A stretch of 6,264 bases of DNA from Candidatus Hydrogenedentota bacterium (GTDB lineage Bacteria > Hydrogenedentota > Hydrogenedentia > Hydrogenedentiales > GCA-2746185). The stretch covers positions 1 to 6,264 of the forward strand of contig DTSJ01000490.1 of assembly GCA_012965445.1 (NCBI GenBank). The letters run 5' to 3'. Below the pieces are notes generated by a model, which was not told the origin of the DNA, made no database searches, and was given only the letters and a program-made list of their open reading frames with translations. This document shows positions 117-6,264 of this stretch, piece after piece; the stretch's first letter is position 1; each line of letters starts with the position of its first letter. The position numbers and the translations under genes are program-made.

Positions 117-131
117 TGGCATAGGGGTTGC
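117..131 (+). promoter_or_regulatory. sigma-54 (-24/-12) promoter candidate for the flagellar remnant
   Basis: TGGCAT at 117-122 and TTGC at 128-131 match the RpoN consensus TGGCAC-N5-TTGC. The key GG (118-119) and GC (130-131) doublets lie exactly 12 bases apart. Transcription would start near 143 and leave a leader of about 170 bases before the ATG at 313. Many flagellar operons are RpoN-dependent, so the position fits. No activator site was recognised, and the call rests on the motif alone. Confidence 0.45.
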
Positions 132-242: not shown

Positions 243-312
243 ATCCCATGGGATTGTATTGTGCAGCGGGACTAGGGAACGGATTGAGATACGCGCAAAG
301 GAAGATTGGTAC

Positions 313-480
313 ATGATTCAGGGATTGTACACAGCGGCAAATGGGATGATCGCGGTTGAGGATCGTCAGGCGGTAATTGCCAATAACATCGCGAATCTAT
401 CGACGAACGGTTTTAAGCGTCAGCTGAGTGTTCAGACCTTACTCTCTCGCGCGTATTGGTGCAACGCAAAACCGTCTTGA
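313..480 (+). pseudogene. FlgF/FlgG-type flagellar rod/hook protein, N-terminal fragment
   Basis: The ATG at 313 is preceded by AAAGGAAG (297-304), a good ribosome binding site. The first ~41 residues carry the signature N-terminus of axial flagellar proteins: MIQGLYTAANGM, then IANNIANLSTNGFKRQ. That helix packs in the basal-body rod or hook. FlgF and FlgG proteins are about 240-265 residues long. Here homology stops near codon 41 (about 435), followed by about 14 unrelated residues and a stop at 478-480. A TTG at 259 lengthens the frame but adds nothing family-like. After the break, the other frame encodes the end of a FlgL-like protein (428-661), so this is a deletion fusion rather than a simple nonsense mutation. 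FlgF and FlgG cannot be told apart from this fragment. The product is not expected to work. Confidence 0.85.
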
Positions 481-661
481 AAGCGTATTGAACAACACTG
501 AGGACTTTATATTGTCACTTCAGGAGCAGCTTTCGAATAAGGTGGATGCTGATTTTGCGGAGACGATGTTACAGTTCGATGTACAGCAAAACGCCTTCGA
601 ATCTGCGCTGAATGCTGTGGCACGAGTGATTCAGAACACATTGCTTGATTTCATTCGCTAA
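428..661 (+). pseudogene. flgL: FlgL/flagellin-type hook-filament junction protein, C-terminal fragment
   Basis: The open frame from a GTG at 428 has recognisable homology from about 446. It shows the flagellin-superfamily C-terminus: LARIGATQNRLESVLNN, then the VDADFAETMLQFDVQQNAFESAL region, ending in LLDFIR and TAA. In FlgL (hook-associated protein 3, about 290-400 residues) this helix pairs with the N-terminal helix in the filament core. The aromatic-hydrophobic LLDFI-type end fits FlgL better than flagellin. The N-terminal helix and central domain are absent, and the frame differs by one base from the FlgF/G fragment just before it, so no fused protein is made without a frameshift. There is no convincing ribosome binding site at 428. 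I infer a remnant left by a deletion. Confidence 0.8.
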
Positions 662-735: not shown

Positions 736-1242
736 GTGCGCACATTCTGTATAGCTATCACGTCAATTTTCTTTGTCGGCTGCGGGGGAGGTGTCGGCAA
801 CACAATTCTTCAGGATTTTGGTATACGGGATCGGCCGGAAGATTATGTATCCGGGGCTGACCGTGTAATGGAGTCGATGCGAGCCGTTGGCGCGACGGAA
901 ATCAAGCGTTTGAATTCCGCGAATCGGCATGGGGAGATCAGGTACGACGGTTCCGATGCGCTTCGGGGAAAGTTTTATAAGGAAGTGCGCGTGTACACGA
1001 AGTCGTATCCGCTGGATGCCCAGCCTATTGGTCGTCAGGGGAATCGGAAAGAAACAGGCTTCAGGGGTCTGATTGAGTACGCTTACGTGTTGAATGAAAG
1101 CGCACGATTTGCGAATCGAACCGAAGCGGCTGCTGCGAACGCTGATATTCCCGGACGTGCGGTTGCGCGTGAGCGGTATCGGTATCGTTTTACATCTGGC
1201 GGTGCGTGGGACGGCGGGAAGGGTGAACTGGTCCGCCAGTGA
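736..1242 (+). CDS. predicted lipoprotein of unknown function
   Basis: I do not recognise the family of this 168-residue protein. The GTG start at 736 has a strong ribosome binding site, AGAAGGGGG (722-730). Residues 1-16 form a short lipoprotein signal: one Arg, a hydrophobic core, and the lipobox FVGC with the acylated Cys at 16, followed by GGG. Gly at +2 is not an inner-membrane retention signal, so an outer-membrane lipoprotein is likely. The mature part has no further membrane segment and is rich in Arg, Tyr and Glu. It has tyrosine-rich strand-like patches, KEVRVYTKSYPL (around residues 82-93) and ERYRYRFTSGG (around 146-156), and an Ala-rich stretch between them, which suggests a small soluble domain. 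It has its own promoter and faces the convergent TerB-like gene with a 16-base gap. It follows the flagellar remnant, but nothing in it suggests a flagellar role. Confidence 0.75.
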   Translation: MRTFCIAITSIFFVGCGGGVGNTILQDFGIRDRPEDYVSGADRVMESMRAVGATEIKRLNSANRHGEIRYDGSDALRGKFYKEVRVYTKSYPLDAQPIGRQGNRKETGFRGLIEYAYVLNESARFANRTEAAAANADIPGRAVARERYRYRFTSGGAWDGGKGELVRQ

Positions 1243-1258: not shown

Positions 1259-1729
1259 TCAGGCGTTACGTGCTTCTTTGAGGATTTTCGTCTTAGACTC
1301 TATGAGTTCCCCGTGCGTGAGATTGAAGAGTTTGGCCAGCTGATGGGCGAGATGGTTTTCGTGTCCGTCGATTGATCCGTCAGCAACGACGACGCGCCAG
1401 ACTTCGTCGATGATCTCCAATTTTTCATCGTGATTGCATGAGTCGTTGATTTGATGGGTAAACGCCCATAAATCCTTGCTTTCTTTTCTTTCTTCGGTAG
1501 CGAGTTCGATGAGTTCGTTTGCGTCTTCTTCTGTAAGGACGAAACGTGTTCGCAATGATTGAACGACGCTGGTACGTTCTTCTGCGGTAAATTCGTCGTC
1601 AGCCATGGCCATTTCGAGGAGTACGACGCAGGTGGCGGCTTTCAATCGTTCTTCGCGAACGTTGGACGGCGGTAGTACATGCGAATCGGATGTTTCGGGT
1701 GAGAAAAGACTTTTGAGTGCTTGAATCAT
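1259..1729 (-). CDS. TerB-like family protein
   Basis: This 156-residue soluble protein looks all-helical and lacks a signal peptide. After a variable lead (1-25), it shows the two-repeat layout of TerB/DjlA-N-terminal-like domains. Residues 28-51 hold the first helix followed by the acidic motif MADDEFTAEE. Residues 105-142 hold the second half, with VADGSIDGHENHLAHQLAKLFNL, whose spacing mirrors the first acidic loop. In this family the acidic loops are thought to bind metal. TerB members are linked to tellurite resistance or stress, but many stand-alone copies, like this one, have no proven role, so tellurite resistance should not be assumed. No other ter genes are visible. The start at 1729 has GGAGAA about 12 bases upstream. 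A TATAAA at 1766-1761 (minus strand) could be its -10 box. Confidence 0.8.
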   Translation of the reverse strand: MIQALKSLFSPETSDSHVLPPSNVREERLKAATCVVLLEMAMADDEFTAEERTSVVQSLRTRFVLTEEDANELIELATEERKESKDLWAFTHQINDSCNHDEKLEIIDEVWRVVVADGSIDGHENHLAHQLAKLFNLTHGELIESKTKILKEARNA

Positions 1730-2062: not shown

Positions 2063-3499
2063 GTGTTGATTGGCACTACCAAACAGATTCATTTCGTCGG
2101 GGTTGGCGGGATCGGTATGAGCGGTCTTGCTGAGATACTGATGAATCTGGGCTATAGTGTTACGGGATCTGATCTGATCACCTCGAGCATTGTGAAGCGT
2201 CTGGAGGGTTTTGGTCTTGGGTTTCATGAGGGCCATGCCGGGGAGAATATAGGCGACGCAGCGATCGTGGTGGTGTCCGCGGCTGTGGGGGATGATAATG
2301 CGGAAGTAAGAGCTGCGCGGGAACGTGGGATTCCGATCCTCCATCGCAGCGAGGTGCTGGCGGATATTCTTCGTATGAAACCGAATGCTGTCGTCGTGGG
2401 CGGCAGCCACGGTAAGACGACGACGACTTCGATGATCAGCGCGATACTGGACGAGGCGGATATTGGGGCTACTTCGATTGTGGGGGGGATTCTTCATCGG
2501 AGTGGAACGAATGCGCGTTGGGGGGCCGGAGAGTATATTGTGGCTGAGGCGGATGAGCATGACGGTTCGTTTTTGAGGCTCCATCCTACGATTGGGGTAG
2601 TCACGAATATTGACACGGAGCATTTGGAGTATTACGGTACGCTGGATAATCTGAAGCGGGCATTCGTTGACTTCTGTAACGGGGTTCCTTTTTATGGGTA
2701 CTCCGTATTGTGCAGCGATTCAGAGAACGTTCGAAGAGTACTCAATTCGATCGAAAGTGTGGCGATTACCTATGGTCTTGAAGAGGGGGCATCGCTGCGG
2801 GGTATGAACATGCGTCTGGGTCACAACGACACCTCGGAGAGTATGGCGAGTCGAATTCGGAGCGTGACAACCAGTATTGATGTGGTGTGTGAGGACGAGC
2901 GGCTAGGCGTTGAGGGGCTGCTGGGAACGCTGGAGGTTCGGTCGCTGGGGGAGAACAATGTTCGGAATGCTTTGGCGGCCTGTACGGTGGGATTGTGCCT
3001 TGGTCTTTCGTTTGACGTTATTTGTGAAGGCCTTCGGCATTTCGACGGGGTCGAACGGCGGCTTGAAGTTCGCGGCGAGTCAAAAGAGATTACGGTTGCT
3101 GAGGATTATGCGCACCATCCGACAGAGATCCAGAGTACGCTTGAGGCCATCCGGTGGATGGAGCCGAATCGCGTGGTCTGTGTGTTTCAACCACACTTGT
3201 ACAGTCGCACGAAGTTTTTTTATGCGGAGTTCAGCGATATATTGAGTGAGTTTGACCTTGCCATTGTGACGGACATTTATCCGTCGAGAGAGGAAGCGCT
3301 GCCGGGCGTGGATTCGGGATTGATAGTTGATCATGCACGGGCATCCGGGGCGGATCATGTGTCTCTGGTGAGCGACATGAATGGCGTGGCTAATGCACTG
3401 ATTCCGCAGCTTGAGGCCGGTGATGTGGTATTGGTGCTGGGTGCTGGTGATGTGAACAGGATAGTGCCTTCTCTTCTTGACGAGCTGGCTGGCGTGTAA
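2063..3499 (+). CDS. murC: UDP-N-acetylmuramate--L-alanine ligase (MurC)
   Basis: This cytoplasmic ATP-dependent ligase adds L-alanine to UDP-MurNAc, the first amino acid of the peptidoglycan stem peptide. It has 478 residues, normal for MurC. The N-terminal UDP-binding domain begins with HFVGVGGIGMSGLAEIL (10-26). The ATP loop is GGSHGKTTTT (113-122), followed by AEADEHDGSF (161-170), TNIDTEHLEYYG (181-192) and ENNVRNALAA (297-306). The C-terminal domain carries GVERRLEVRG (329-338), EDYAHHPTEI (347-356), QPHLYSRTK (376-384) and DIYPSREEALPG (404-415). These features point to MurC rather than MurD, MurE, MurF or Mpl. Asn replaces the His usual in the G-H-N-V motif at about 298, a change also tolerated in other Mur ligases. 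The GTG at 2063 has AAGG (2052-2055) upstream; an in-frame ATG at 2042 is cut off by a stop. Its TAA shares its last base with the ftsQ ATG. Confidence 0.97.
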   Translation: MLIGTTKQIHFVGVGGIGMSGLAEILMNLGYSVTGSDLITSSIVKRLEGFGLGFHEGHAGENIGDAAIVVVSAAVGDDNAEVRAARERGIPILHRSEVLADILRMKPNAVVVGGSHGKTTTTSMISAILDEADIGATSIVGGILHRSGTNARWGAGEYIVAEADEHDGSFLRLHPTIGVVTNIDTEHLEYYGTLDNLKRAFVDFCNGVPFYGYSVLCSDSENVRRVLNSIESVAITYGLEEGASLRGMNMRLGHNDTSESMASRIRSVTTSIDVVCEDERLGVEGLLGTLEVRSLGENNVRNALAACTVGLCLGLSFDVICEGLRHFDGVERRLEVRGESKEITVAEDYAHHPTEIQSTLEAIRWMEPNRVVCVFQPHLYSRTKFFYAEFSDILSEFDLAIVTDIYPSREEALPGVDSGLIVDHARASGADHVSLVSDMNGVANALIPQLEAGDVVLVLGAGDVNRIVPSLLDELAGV

Positions 3500-4287
3500 T
3501 GGGGAAACAGAGTGCATATGCACACCGCAAACGCGGACGCAAACCGCCGCAGAGTCGAAAACGATTCCTGCTGGTGTTTGAAGCGGGCGTGTGTGTTGCA
3601 GCCCTTGGTGCTCTTGGTTACTATTTTTATCAATACACGGTGGGTTCCGAACAGTTTCGGGTTGGTACGATTCGGATAGAGGGACTGCGGGTATTGGATG
3701 AGGATGACGTCGTGCGTCAGTCGGGATTGCTGGAAGGCGGCAACGTTCTCTATTTGGACGTCGAGGGAGTCTGTCGTTCCGTGGAGGAACTTCCCTACGT
3801 TCGTGCGTGCACATTGCGACAGGTGTTCCCGGATACGGTGATTCTGGAAATCACAGAGCGAGTCGGCATCCTGACGCTTCAATTGAACAGTCGTTCCTAT
3901 CTGATTGATGAGGATGGAGTGGTCCTTCGGGAATTTGCGAGCGAGGAATCGCCGTTGACTCCGTTTATTACCAATGTCGGGGAGCTGGATTTCGTTGAAA
4001 TAGGTGATGAGCTGGGTCAGGCAGGGCTGCAGGGTGCATTGGCGGTGTGGGCCGAGTTTTCCCGACTTCCCATGGCGAAGGGTATCACGGTATCGGAGAT
4101 AGCGGCCCTTTCTGAGAGGGAGTTGGTGATGTATTGTGATGACCTCGTTTATGAGATCCGGTGGGGACACGACGATGTAGAAGGTCAGGCGATGCGGTTG
4201 AATGTTCTCTGGGAAAGCGAGGGAGGCTCATTGAATTGCAACGAGTACCTGGATCTGAGATTTGAGGACAATCTGGTGTGTAAATAG
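3499..4287 (+). CDS. ftsQ: cell division protein FtsQ/DivIB
   Basis: FtsQ is a bitopic inner-membrane protein that, with FtsB and FtsL, links the Z ring to septal peptidoglycan synthesis. This 262-residue protein has the family layout. A very basic cytoplasmic tail (1-22, many Lys and Arg) is followed by one membrane segment (about 24-45, with a Glu at 28). A POTRA domain spans about 53-122, from FRVGTIRIEGLRVL through VFPDTVILEITER. The FtsQ beta domain then begins with SYLIDEDGVVL (133-143) and ends with a strand, YLDLRFEDNLVCK, typical of the FtsQ C-terminus. The ATG overlaps the murC stop (TAATG), so the two are probably translationally coupled. The next gene is ftsZ, and the usual ftsA between them is missing. 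An outer-membrane POTRA protein is excluded by the single membrane segment and small size. Confidence 0.92.
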   Translation: MGKQSAYAHRKRGRKPPQSRKRFLLVFEAGVCVAALGALGYYFYQYTVGSEQFRVGTIRIEGLRVLDEDDVVRQSGLLEGGNVLYLDVEGVCRSVEELPYVRACTLRQVFPDTVILEITERVGILTLQLNSRSYLIDEDGVVLREFASEESPLTPFITNVGELDFVEIGDELGQAGLQGALAVWAEFSRLPMAKGITVSEIAALSERELVMYCDDLVYEIRWGHDDVEGQAMRLNVLWESEGGSLNCNEYLDLRFEDNLVCK

Positions 4288-4308
4288 GCTTTAGGAAATC
4301 TGAGAGGG

Positions 4309-4337
4309 TTGTGTAGGGACAGCGCGGGTGATACTAT
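4309..4337 (+). promoter_or_regulatory. promoter candidate for ftsZ
   Basis: TTGTGT (4309-4314) and TACTAT (4332-4337) are 17 bases apart, and TG (4329-4330) makes the second an extended -10. Each box matches only 3-4 of 6 consensus bases. The predicted start near 4344 would let ftsZ be transcribed apart from murC-ftsQ. The similar TTGTG -35 in the lipoprotein promoter adds some support. Confidence 0.4.
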
Positions 4338-4348
4338 GATGTCGTCAT

Positions 4349-4382
4349 GGTTCGGGGCGCCAGTTCCGAATCGGGGGAACTG
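4349..4382 (+). promoter_or_regulatory. two mutually exclusive hairpins in the ftsZ leader
   Basis: Hairpin A pairs GGTTCGG (4349-4355) with CCGAATC (4366-4372), 7 pairs including one G-U. Hairpin B pairs CAGTTCC (4361-4367) with GGAACTG (4376-4382), 7 perfect pairs with an 8-base loop. They share bases and cannot form together. Hairpin B ends two bases before the ribosome binding site AGGAG (4385-4389). No run of T follows, so translational rather than terminator control would be the likelier use, if any. Confidence 0.4.
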
Positions 4383-4398
4383 ATAGGAGTAGTTTGCT

Positions 4399-5619
4399 AT
4401 GAGCATTGGTCTCAGTAACGAAACACCGTCTTTCGAGCAGAATGCGCTTATCAAGGTATGCGGCGTAGGCGGCGGCGGGGGGAACGCGGTCACGCGCATG
4501 ATCGAAGAGAATCTGCGGGACGTGGATTTTATTGCGATCAATACTGATGCGCAGGCGCTGAAGAAATCTCCAGCGGGTACTCGGCTTCAGATTGGTTCTG
4601 ATCTGACATCAGGCTTGGGATCCGGTGCGAAACCGGATATTGGGAAGCAGGCAGCGCTGGATGATCGGGAACGGATATTCGATGTGATCTCCGGCGCTGA
4701 CATGATATTTGTGACGACGGGCCTTGGGGGCGGAACGGGTACGGGAGCGGCACCGGTGGTGGCGGAAGTAGCGCGATCGAGCGGCGCGTTGACCGTGGGT
4801 ATCGCGACTCTGCCGTTTGCTTTTGAGGGTGCAGAACGTATGCAGAATGCTCTAAAGGGTCTTATTGAACTTGAAGAGCAAGTCGACACAATGATCGTGA
4901 TTCCGAATGATCGTGTTGAACGTCTTTGCCAGGAAAATATCTCGTTGCTGAACGCGTTTCATCAGGCTGATGAGGTGCTGCACAATGGTGTTCGGGCCAT
5001 ATCTGAGCTGATTACAATTCCCGGTCTAATCAATCTTGATTTCGCGGATGTGCGCACGATTATGCGGTCTCGCGGTCGCGCACTGATGGGTATTGGTGTT
5101 GCGGAAGGAGAGGGGCGCGCTGTCAGAGCGGCGGACGAGGCGATCATCTGTCCTTTGCTTGAGCAGAGTAATATTCATGGGGCTAAGGGCGTGATTGTGA
5201 ATATCAAGGGAGGATGTGATATCGGGATGCGGGAGGTGCAGGAGGCCGTATCTACGGTCCAGGCTGCGGCGCATCCGGACGCGAATATAATTTTCGGCGC
5301 GGTAATTGATGATGACGAACGGCCTGAGCTTCAAGTGACCGTGATTGCTGCGGGTTTTTCCCCGGGGGTATCGCAGGAATATCTTGCGAACAGCGAACGG
5401 ATTGCCCAAGGCACGGCTACGTCTGTCGCAGTTGAGAGCGACTCTGCGTCTACAGAGGCAGAGTCGGAAGAAACTGATGAGGCAGCATCTGAAAAGAGTG
5501 CAGATGAGTTATTGTTTCCGACGGAAGATACTGATGCTCCACAGCCTACGAAACGAGTGGAGGCGGATGAGGATTTGAGTATTCCGGCGTTTATGCGAAA
5601 GAGAAAGAAGAGTCTGTGA
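4399..5619 (+). CDS. ftsZ: cell division GTPase FtsZ
   Basis: FtsZ is a tubulin-like GTPase that polymerises into the cytoplasmic Z ring at midcell and recruits the divisome. The 406-residue protein is of normal length. It shows the glycine-rich start KVCGVGGGGGNAV (19-31), AINTDAQAL (46-54), and the tubulin signature GGGTGTG (110-116). The catalytic T7 loop NLDFADV (212-218) has both acidic residues (Asp214, Asp217) needed for GTP hydrolysis across the subunit interface. The core ends near 335. An acidic Ser/Glu/Asp-rich linker (about 340-392) leads to the conserved tail LSIPAFMRKRKKSL, the docking peptide for membrane anchors such as FtsA, ZipA or SepF. The ATG has AGGAG (4385-4389) nine bases upstream. 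No ftsA lies beside it, so the tail's partner is encoded elsewhere. Its TGA overlaps the start of pilT by four bases. Confidence 0.99.
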   Translation: MSIGLSNETPSFEQNALIKVCGVGGGGGNAVTRMIEENLRDVDFIAINTDAQALKKSPAGTRLQIGSDLTSGLGSGAKPDIGKQAALDDRERIFDVISGADMIFVTTGLGGGTGTGAAPVVAEVARSSGALTVGIATLPFAFEGAERMQNALKGLIELEEQVDTMIVIPNDRVERLCQENISLLNAFHQADEVLHNGVRAISELITIPGLINLDFADVRTIMRSRGRALMGIGVAEGEGRAVRAADEAIICPLLEQSNIHGAKGVIVNIKGGCDIGMREVQEAVSTVQAAAHPDANIIFGAVIDDDERPELQVTVIAAGFSPGVSQEYLANSERIAQGTATSVAVESDSASTEAESEETDEAASEKSADELLFPTEDTDAPQPTKRVEADEDLSIPAFMRKRKKSL

Positions 5620-6264
5620 GCGAGCAACGCGACAAGTTTCTGAAAGTGCTTCAACGCGGTATCCAAAAGGACGCTTCGGACATACATCTGAAGACGAGTT
5701 GTCCAGTCTACTATCGGATCGACGGAAACATCGAACCGGATCGTGATGTTATTGTTGATTCGGCTGACATCGAAAGTTTCGTGGACATCTTGTTGGGTGT
5801 GGATCAGAAGCGGCATTTCCTCAAGCGCGGCGAGATCGATCTTGCGTTTACGGAGAAGGGTGTCGGACGGTTTCGTGTGAATATATTTCGTCAGCGCGGC
5901 CAAGTCTCGCTTGTCATGCGGCGGATCAAGACGAAGATGCTGACGTTTGAGCAGTTGAATCTACCGAGTGCGGCGCTGAAACTTGCGGAGTATGTGCGAG
6001 GTCTGGTGTTGATCACGGGAACGACCGGCAGCGGGAAGTCTACGGCACTTGCATCGCTGATCGACCACATAAACGAACAACGGAAATGCCACATCGTTAC
6101 AATTGAAGATCCGATTGAATTCATCCATCAGGACAAATCGGCGATTGTGAATCAGCGCGAAATTACGATTGATACAGCTGATTTTTCGGCAGCGCTAAAA
6201 GCGGCAATGCGTCAAGATCCTGATGTACTGCTGGTGGGTGAGATGCGCGATCTGGAGACGTTTC
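5616..6264 (+). CDS. pilT: type IV pilus retraction ATPase PilT (partial, right edge)
   Basis: PilT is a hexameric cytoplasmic ATPase at the base of the type IV pilus that drives pilin disassembly, retraction and twitching. The first 216 residues are present and the frame is open at the edge; the family averages about 345-370. The N-terminal PAS-like domain has ASDIHLKTSCPVYYRIDGNI (20-39). The ATPase core has the Walker A loop GTTGSGKST (135-143), the Asp box VTIEDPIEFIH (161-171), and the Walker B region RQDPDVLLVGEMRD (199-212). Walker A near residue 135 fits PilT or PilU; PilB and GspE place it far later. PilU is the main alternative, as the distinguishing C-terminus is off the window. 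The GTG at 5616 overlaps the ftsZ stop (GTGA), and only a weak purine-rich site lies upstream, so translation is likely coupled to ftsZ. Confidence 0.9.
   Translation, partial: MSEQRDKFLKVLQRGIQKDASDIHLKTSCPVYYRIDGNIEPDRDVIVDSADIESFVDILLGVDQKRHFLKRGEIDLAFTEKGVGRFRVNIFRQRGQVSLVMRRIKTKMLTFEQLNLPSAALKLAEYVRGLVLITGTTGSGKSTALASLIDHINEQRKCHIVTIEDPIEFIHQDKSAIVNQREITIDTADFSAALKAAMRQDPDVLLVGEMRDLETF

What the first reader, a model, noticed from the sequence alone, without database searches (positions are those of the whole stretch)
313..661. Deletion scar joining the start of a FlgF/FlgG gene to the end of a flgL-type gene
The N-terminal axial-protein signature (codons 1-41 from 313) ends at about 435. 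By about 446, one frame over, the flagellin-superfamily C-terminus begins. In many genomes flgF/flgG and flgL lie near opposite ends of a flagellar gene run (rod, P/L ring, flgM, flgN, flgK, flgL), so one event could have removed several kilobases. Both ends remain well conserved, which suggests a recent loss. An intact-looking pilT in the same window suggests surface motility may have been kept.
Basis: partly seen in the sequence, partly recalled or inferred. Interest (0 to 1): 0.75.

Follow-up and report, generated by a model that had tools for sequence, protein, structure and literature searches.

The report
Scar of a deleted flagellar operon
An uncultured bacterium appears to have lost a stretch of genes for its swimming flagellum, leaving the start of one flagellar gene joined to the end of another; this is a clear but ordinary example of gene loss.

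Summary
Positions 313-438 encode the first 42 residues of a flagellar axial protein, probably FlgF; ~433-661 encode the last ~76 residues of FlgL, the hook-filament junction protein. The window belongs to Candidatus Hydrogenedentota (MurC, 98%). Relatives have full-length FlgL: 51 of 53 hits are 295-307 aa.

The pieces meet at a Gln-Thr codon pair (CAGACC, 433-438) that fits both genes, so the join looks like a short-homology deletion. The frame offset lies a few bases on, in a CT run (442-448), and is probably a separate small change.

The same junction, with one different residue, is the representative (P0176) of a protein cluster standing for three contigs from another source, so a chimeric assembly is unlikely. 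The FlgL piece has not drifted faster than intact relatives, so the loss looks recent within the clade. A sigma-54-type promoter-like site (117-131) survives upstream. The deletion's size, and whether the cell still swims, cannot be decided: no whole genome is held. Such scars are known (E. coli K-12 Flag-2 remnants). New member of a known kind.

The parts
117..131 (+). sigma-54-type -24/-12 promoter-like site (TGGCATAGGGGTTGC), possibly the surviving promoter of the lost operon
   Evidence: exact match to the pattern; 0.03 expected in the whole window, 5 of 200 shuffles have one. Consensus recalled; function not shown
297..304 (+). ribosome-binding-site-like AAAGGAAG, 8 bases before the ATG at 313
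   Evidence: read from the sequence; motif recalled
313..438 (+). first 42 codons of a probable flgF gene (axial rod protein)
   Evidence: Pfam PF00460 E 1.5e-10; relatives P0177-P0181 continue past this point with FlgF-like sequence
433..438 (+). junction: CAGACC, encoding Gln-Thr, fits both FlgF and FlgL; inferred short homology at the deletion
   Evidence: Gln in 53 of 53 and Thr next in 11 of 53 FlgL relatives; Gln in 5 of 5 and Thr next in 2 of 5 uninterrupted FlgF relatives. Protein-level inference
442..448 (+). CT dinucleotide run in which the reading frame changes
   Evidence: upstream residues fit the FlgL columns in the flgF frame, downstream part in the next frame
433..661 (+). last ~76 codons of a flgL gene, with its stop codon
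   Evidence: TIGR02550 E 1.7e-15, model 319-387 of 387; 81% identical over 94% of the piece to the 304-aa FlgL P0124
313..480 (+). 55-aa open frame now left: FlgF start plus a tail that ends out of the FlgL frame
   Evidence: the same 55-aa protein with one changed residue is P0176

Best explanation
This is the scar of a deletion in a Hydrogenedentota chromosome. Recombination or slippage between a short stretch shared by flgF and flgL (the Gln-Thr codon pair at 433-438) removed everything between codon ~42 of flgF and the last ~76 codons of flgL. That left the probable promoter, the ribosome-binding-site-like sequence and the first part of flgF joined to the end of flgL. A second, small change in the adjacent CT run put the FlgL part out of frame, so only a 55-aa peptide can now be read from the flgF start. 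Shown: both pieces, their families, the same junction in another protein record, full-length FlgL in relatives. Inferred: the short-homology mechanism, the order of the two changes, the size of the deletion, and loss of function of this flagellar gene set.
For: Family matches. Phylum from MurC, 98% identical to an NCBI protein named Candidatus Hydrogenedentota (P0003). Of 53 FlgL relatives, 51 are 295-307 aa; the two nearest of these are 81 and 78% identical to the window piece (P0124, P0125). Junction-specific tail shared by P0176 (55 aa, 98% identity over 100%; cluster of 5 member sequences and 3 contigs, of which only the representative was seen). Both ends lie on the same strand and in the order flgF...flgL seen in E. 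coli. Short homology: counts. The next three residues in the flgF frame (LLS) fit the FlgL columns at p 0.0056. No acceleration: mean identity to 50 outgroup FlgLs is 54.8% for the window piece, against 55.4, 54.8 and 53.8% for P0123, P0124 and P0125.
Against: No DNA of an intact close relative could be fetched, so the breakpoints are inferred from proteins. The deleted span was not observed. The rest of the genome is not held, so intact flgF and flgL copies elsewhere cannot be excluded. The two-step order rests on three residues, one of which (Leu before the Ser) is found in only 4 of 53 relatives. Three of the five uninterrupted FlgF relatives have Lys or Arg, not Thr, at the second residue of the shared pair.
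Confidence: 0.85

Rival explanations
1. The join is a chimeric assembly of two distant parts of one genome or of two genomes.
For: Metagenomic origin is likely; no reads could be checked.
Against: The same junction, with one changed residue, is the representative of a cluster from another source (P0176), although whether the samples are independent was not seen. The shared sequence inferred at the join is about 6 bases, far shorter than assembly k-mers (recalled). The two pieces are on one strand in the operon order.
Confidence: 0.05
2. The pieces were brought together by an inversion, insertion-excision or translocation, and the missing parts survive elsewhere in the genome.
For: The rest of the genome could not be searched.
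Against: A simple deletion between same-strand genes explains all that is seen; no transposase is among the family matches shown for the eight ORFs scanned (other small ORFs were not scanned, and the list for the pilT frame was capped at 25).
Confidence: 0.07
3. A variant of the best explanation: one out-of-frame deletion made the scar directly at about 443-446, and the FlgL-like fit of the residues just upstream is chance. (Confidence is for this detail, within the deletion reading.)
For: Simpler: one event instead of two.
Against: The three residues after the shared pair (LLS) fit the FlgL columns at p 0.0056, and the five FlgF relatives do not read so there.
Confidence: 0.15
4. The 55-aa remnant, or a once in-frame FlgF-FlgL miniature, is a working product kept by selection.
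For: Promoter-like site, ribosome-binding-site-like sequence and start codon remain; P0176 differs by only one residue of 55.
Against: The window's changed residue (Leu29) is seen in none of the six relatives. One close variant cannot show constraint. The end of the tail is out-of-frame sequence.
Confidence: 0.03

Closest known systems
[quoted passage not shown]
   Same: A flagellar gene cluster is gone and only its two terminal gene remnants are left (passages of PMC3032704).
   Different: There a whole second cluster was lost in a well-studied species. Here the ends are flgF and flgL, the host is an uncultured candidate phylum, and whether another flagellar set remains is unknown.
FlgF rod protein (TIGR02490; Flg_bb_rod PF00460)
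   Same: First 42 residues with the full axial-protein signature.
   Different: About 80% of the protein is missing (estimate from the model length of 218).
FlgL / HAP3 (TIGR02550; Flagellin_C PF00700)
   Same: Last ~76 residues to the native stop codon.
   Different: The first ~228 residues are missing and the frame is offset from the flgF start.

Membership tests
FlgF (flagellar rod protein) | N-terminal Flg_bb_rod signature | tested here: met
   PF00460 41.2 bits, cut-off 20.7
FlgF (flagellar rod protein) | full length, FlgF model over its cut-off | tested here: not met
   TIGR02490 36.9 bits against cut-off 178.5: a fragment
FlgF (flagellar rod protein) | FlgF rather than FlgG or FlgE | tested here: inconclusive
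   fragment: FlgE model 38.7, FlgF 36.9, FlgG 35.3 bits; five partial relatives favour FlgF over FlgG in 5 of 5 and over FlgE in 4 of 5, none over cut-off
FlgL (hook-filament junction protein) | C-terminal flagellin-superfamily region to the end of the protein | tested here: met
   TIGR02550 E 1.7e-15, model 319-387/387; alignment
FlgL (hook-filament junction protein) | N-terminal Flagellin_N region | tested here: not met
   no PF00669 match in either fragment; present in relatives P0124 and P0128
Deletion scar / pseudogene remnant | same junction in another assembly | tested here: met
   P0176, representative of a cluster of 5 member sequences and 3 contigs; the other members were not seen
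Deletion scar / pseudogene remnant | intact genes at the same place in relatives | tested here: inconclusive
   FlgL P0124 and MurC P0005 both list a longest contig of 16,920; P0130 and P0016 both 7,661; two such coincidences above 5 kb have p 0.0007 in a rough simulation, 0.043 without the 5-kb limit. The contigs themselves were not read
Deletion scar / pseudogene remnant | missing parts absent from the rest of the genome | not testable with these tools
   no genome held for the window

The most novel reading that the evidence does not exclude
The deletion first produced an in-frame miniature protein, the FlgF start joined to the FlgL end, which was made from the sigma-54-type promoter and had a role of its own before a step in the CT run silenced it, so that the locus is caught between loss of an operon and birth of a new gene.
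Probability: 0.03. Interest if true: 0.6.

Novelty: new member of a known kind. Interest (0 to 1): 0.3.

Why it matters
It records flagellar gene loss close to base resolution in a candidate phylum described in print as motile (PMC11406978, passages), with a likely mechanism (short-homology deletion) and rough timing. It gives a marker for tracing when one lineage gave up this gene set. It does not point to a new kind of system.

Tried and rejected
Searching the window's own genome: none held. The one scan of genome contigs with MurC found only an Omnitrophota locus at 35% identity. A search of 39 genomes (that Omnitrophota genome and 38 of its relatives) matched MurC in 37, with the best match per genome at 22-44% identity, so no Hydrogenedentota genome could be reached for direct synteny. 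Viral-contig scans with MurC and with FlgL P0124 found no relative (2 of 8 scans used). Rfam at gathering threshold: no match in the window. Repeat-mediated loss: the longest direct repeat in 1-800 is 15 bases at 80% identity and does not touch the join; an imperfect palindrome (409-438, 72% complementary arms, overlapping) ends at the join and could have helped slippage, but was not tested against chance. Mobile elements: no transposase among the matches shown for the eight ORFs scanned. Timing by private residues: the window FlgL piece has 2 residues unseen in 53 relatives; P0123, P0124 and P0125 have 3 each against the other 52. Omnitrophota gene order: in L007 ten of the 64 listed ORFs were scanned and show flgI (partial), sugar-modification genes, flgK, flgL, fliW and flagellin on one strand; flgF was not looked for there. 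The literature search for flgF/flgL loss gave one listing, a Brucella review, not opened. The frame-2 residues upstream of the FlgL match (RPY) do not fit FlgL at all, but that does not separate the one-step from the two-step reading, so it is not used. The p of 9e-5 for QTLLS counts two residues that FlgF also has, so only the 0.0056 for LLS is used.

The coincidence test of contig lengths used 119 of the 120 MurC rows listed (themselves the best of 7,754) and all 53 FlgL rows. The search behind P0176-P0181 could by design see only proteins of about 54-171 aa, so it favours truncated forms and says nothing about how common full-length FlgF is; four of these six lie on contigs of 431-1,033 bases.

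Full report
What was checked. Both pieces are there. The 55-aa frame at 313-480 matches the whole Flg_bb_rod model (E 1.5e-10). The 77-aa frame at 428-661, one frame over, matches Flagellin_C (E 1.6e-6) and the last 69 positions of the FlgL model TIGR02550 (E 1.7e-15).

Whose DNA it is. The gene at 2063-3499 is murC (TIGR01082). Its best relative is 98% identical and named Candidatus Hydrogenedentota in NCBI (P0003). No genome is held for the window. The neighbours are a putative lipoprotein without a family match, a TerB-domain protein on the other strand, murC, ftsQ, ftsZ and the first part of a pilT-family gene that runs off the window.

Relatives of the FlgL piece. A search found 53 proteins (E up to 0.001) among 72 candidates; 51 are 295-307 aa, that is, of full FlgL size, and the two nearest of these are 81 and 78% identical to the window piece. 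P0128, the one row with an organism name shown, is Candidatus Hydrogenedentota. Two pairs of a FlgL and a MurC row share the same longest-contig length (16,920: P0124 and P0005; 7,661: P0130 and P0016), which suggests that flgL lies near murC in relatives. For contigs above 5 kb a rough simulation gave p 0.0007, and 0.043 without that limit (119 of 120 listed MurC rows used). The contigs themselves were not read.

The junction is not unique to this record. A search limited to about 54-171 aa found six relatives of the FlgF piece. P0176 is 55 aa, identical to the window's frame but for residue 29, and carries the same tail across the join. It represents a cluster of five member sequences on three contigs, source 'lgn' (taken to mean Logan assemblies of single sequencing runs; recalled). 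Only the representative was seen. A misjoin at the same base in another assembly, across only about six shared bases, is unlikely. The other five relatives keep FlgF-like sequence past the join. They are partial and were selected by the length limit. They score higher with the FlgF than the FlgG model in 5 of 5, and higher than with FlgE models in 4 of 5. The fragment itself does not decide between these.

How the join was made. At the join the five uninterrupted FlgF relatives read Gln in 5 of 5, then Thr in 2 (P0177, P0178), Lys in 2 and Arg in 1. FlgL relatives read Gln in 53 of 53, Thr next in 11 of 53, and Leu after that in 46 of 53. The window reads Gln-Thr-Leu-Leu-Ser in the flgF frame and then continues as FlgL (LARIGATQNRL) in the next frame. 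The three residues after the shared pair fit the FlgL columns at p 0.0056, although the second of them is found there in only 4 of 53. So the join is best placed at the shared Gln-Thr codons, 433-438, and the frame change a few bases on, in the CT run at 442-448, is best read as a separate small event. A single out-of-frame deletion at about 443-446 is not excluded. An imperfect palindrome (409-438) ends at the join (not tested against chance). No transposase is among the matches shown for eight ORFs. DNA of an intact relative would test this order of events.

How old it is. The FlgL piece is no further from 50 outgroup FlgLs (mean 54.8% identity) than are three close relatives (55.4, 54.8, 53.8%). 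It has two residues not seen in 53 relatives. It has therefore not drifted for long. If P0176 and the window share the event, the scar is older than the split between these two variants.

What else survives. A sigma-54-type site lies at 117-131, where 0.03 is expected by chance in the window (5 of 200 shuffles have one), about 180 bases before the ATG, and a ribosome-binding-site-like sequence precedes the ATG. These fit the front end of a flagellar operon, though function was not tested.

What is not known. The deletion removed at least the rest of flgF (about 180 codons by the model length) and about 228 codons of flgL, roughly 1.2 kb. In E. coli the span from flgF start to flgL end is 7,185 bp on one strand, so several kilobases are plausible. 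Whether other flagellar genes remain, and whether the cell swims or uses pili, cannot be said. Hydrogenedentota as a group are described as motile (PMC11406978, passages read), and a paper on flagellin diversity names Hydrogenedentes in its list of phyla in the section on flagellin distribution (PMC7018530, passage read).

Verdict. Such remnants are known, for example those left of the Flag-2 cluster in E. coli K-12 (PMC3032704, passages read). The finding is genuine but ordinary.

Noticed in passing
window 117-131 (+): Exact sigma-54-type -24/-12 pattern about 180 bases upstream of the flgF start; 0.03 expected by chance in the window.
   Followed up: partly
window 409-438 (+): Imperfect palindrome (72% complementary, overlapping arms) that ends at the inferred breakpoint; not tested against chance.
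   Followed up: no
P0123, not in the window: A relative has a FlgL frame of only 165 aa, lacking the N-terminal half, in a cluster of three contigs: possibly a second, independent decay of flgL in the clade, or a broken assembly.
   Followed up: no
window 736-1242 (+): Putative lipoprotein of 168 aa with no Pfam or NCBIfam match, directly downstream of the scar.
   Followed up: no
window 1259-1729 (-): TerB-domain protein (PF05099, E 5e-28) on the opposite strand between the scar and murC.
   Followed up: no
window 2063-5619 (+): murC, ftsQ and ftsZ follow one another with no murB, ddl or ftsA between them, unlike the common order (recalled).
   Followed up: no
window 5616-6264 (+): pilT-family gene runs off the window; 216 residues seen, so whether it is intact cannot be judged.
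   Followed up: partly
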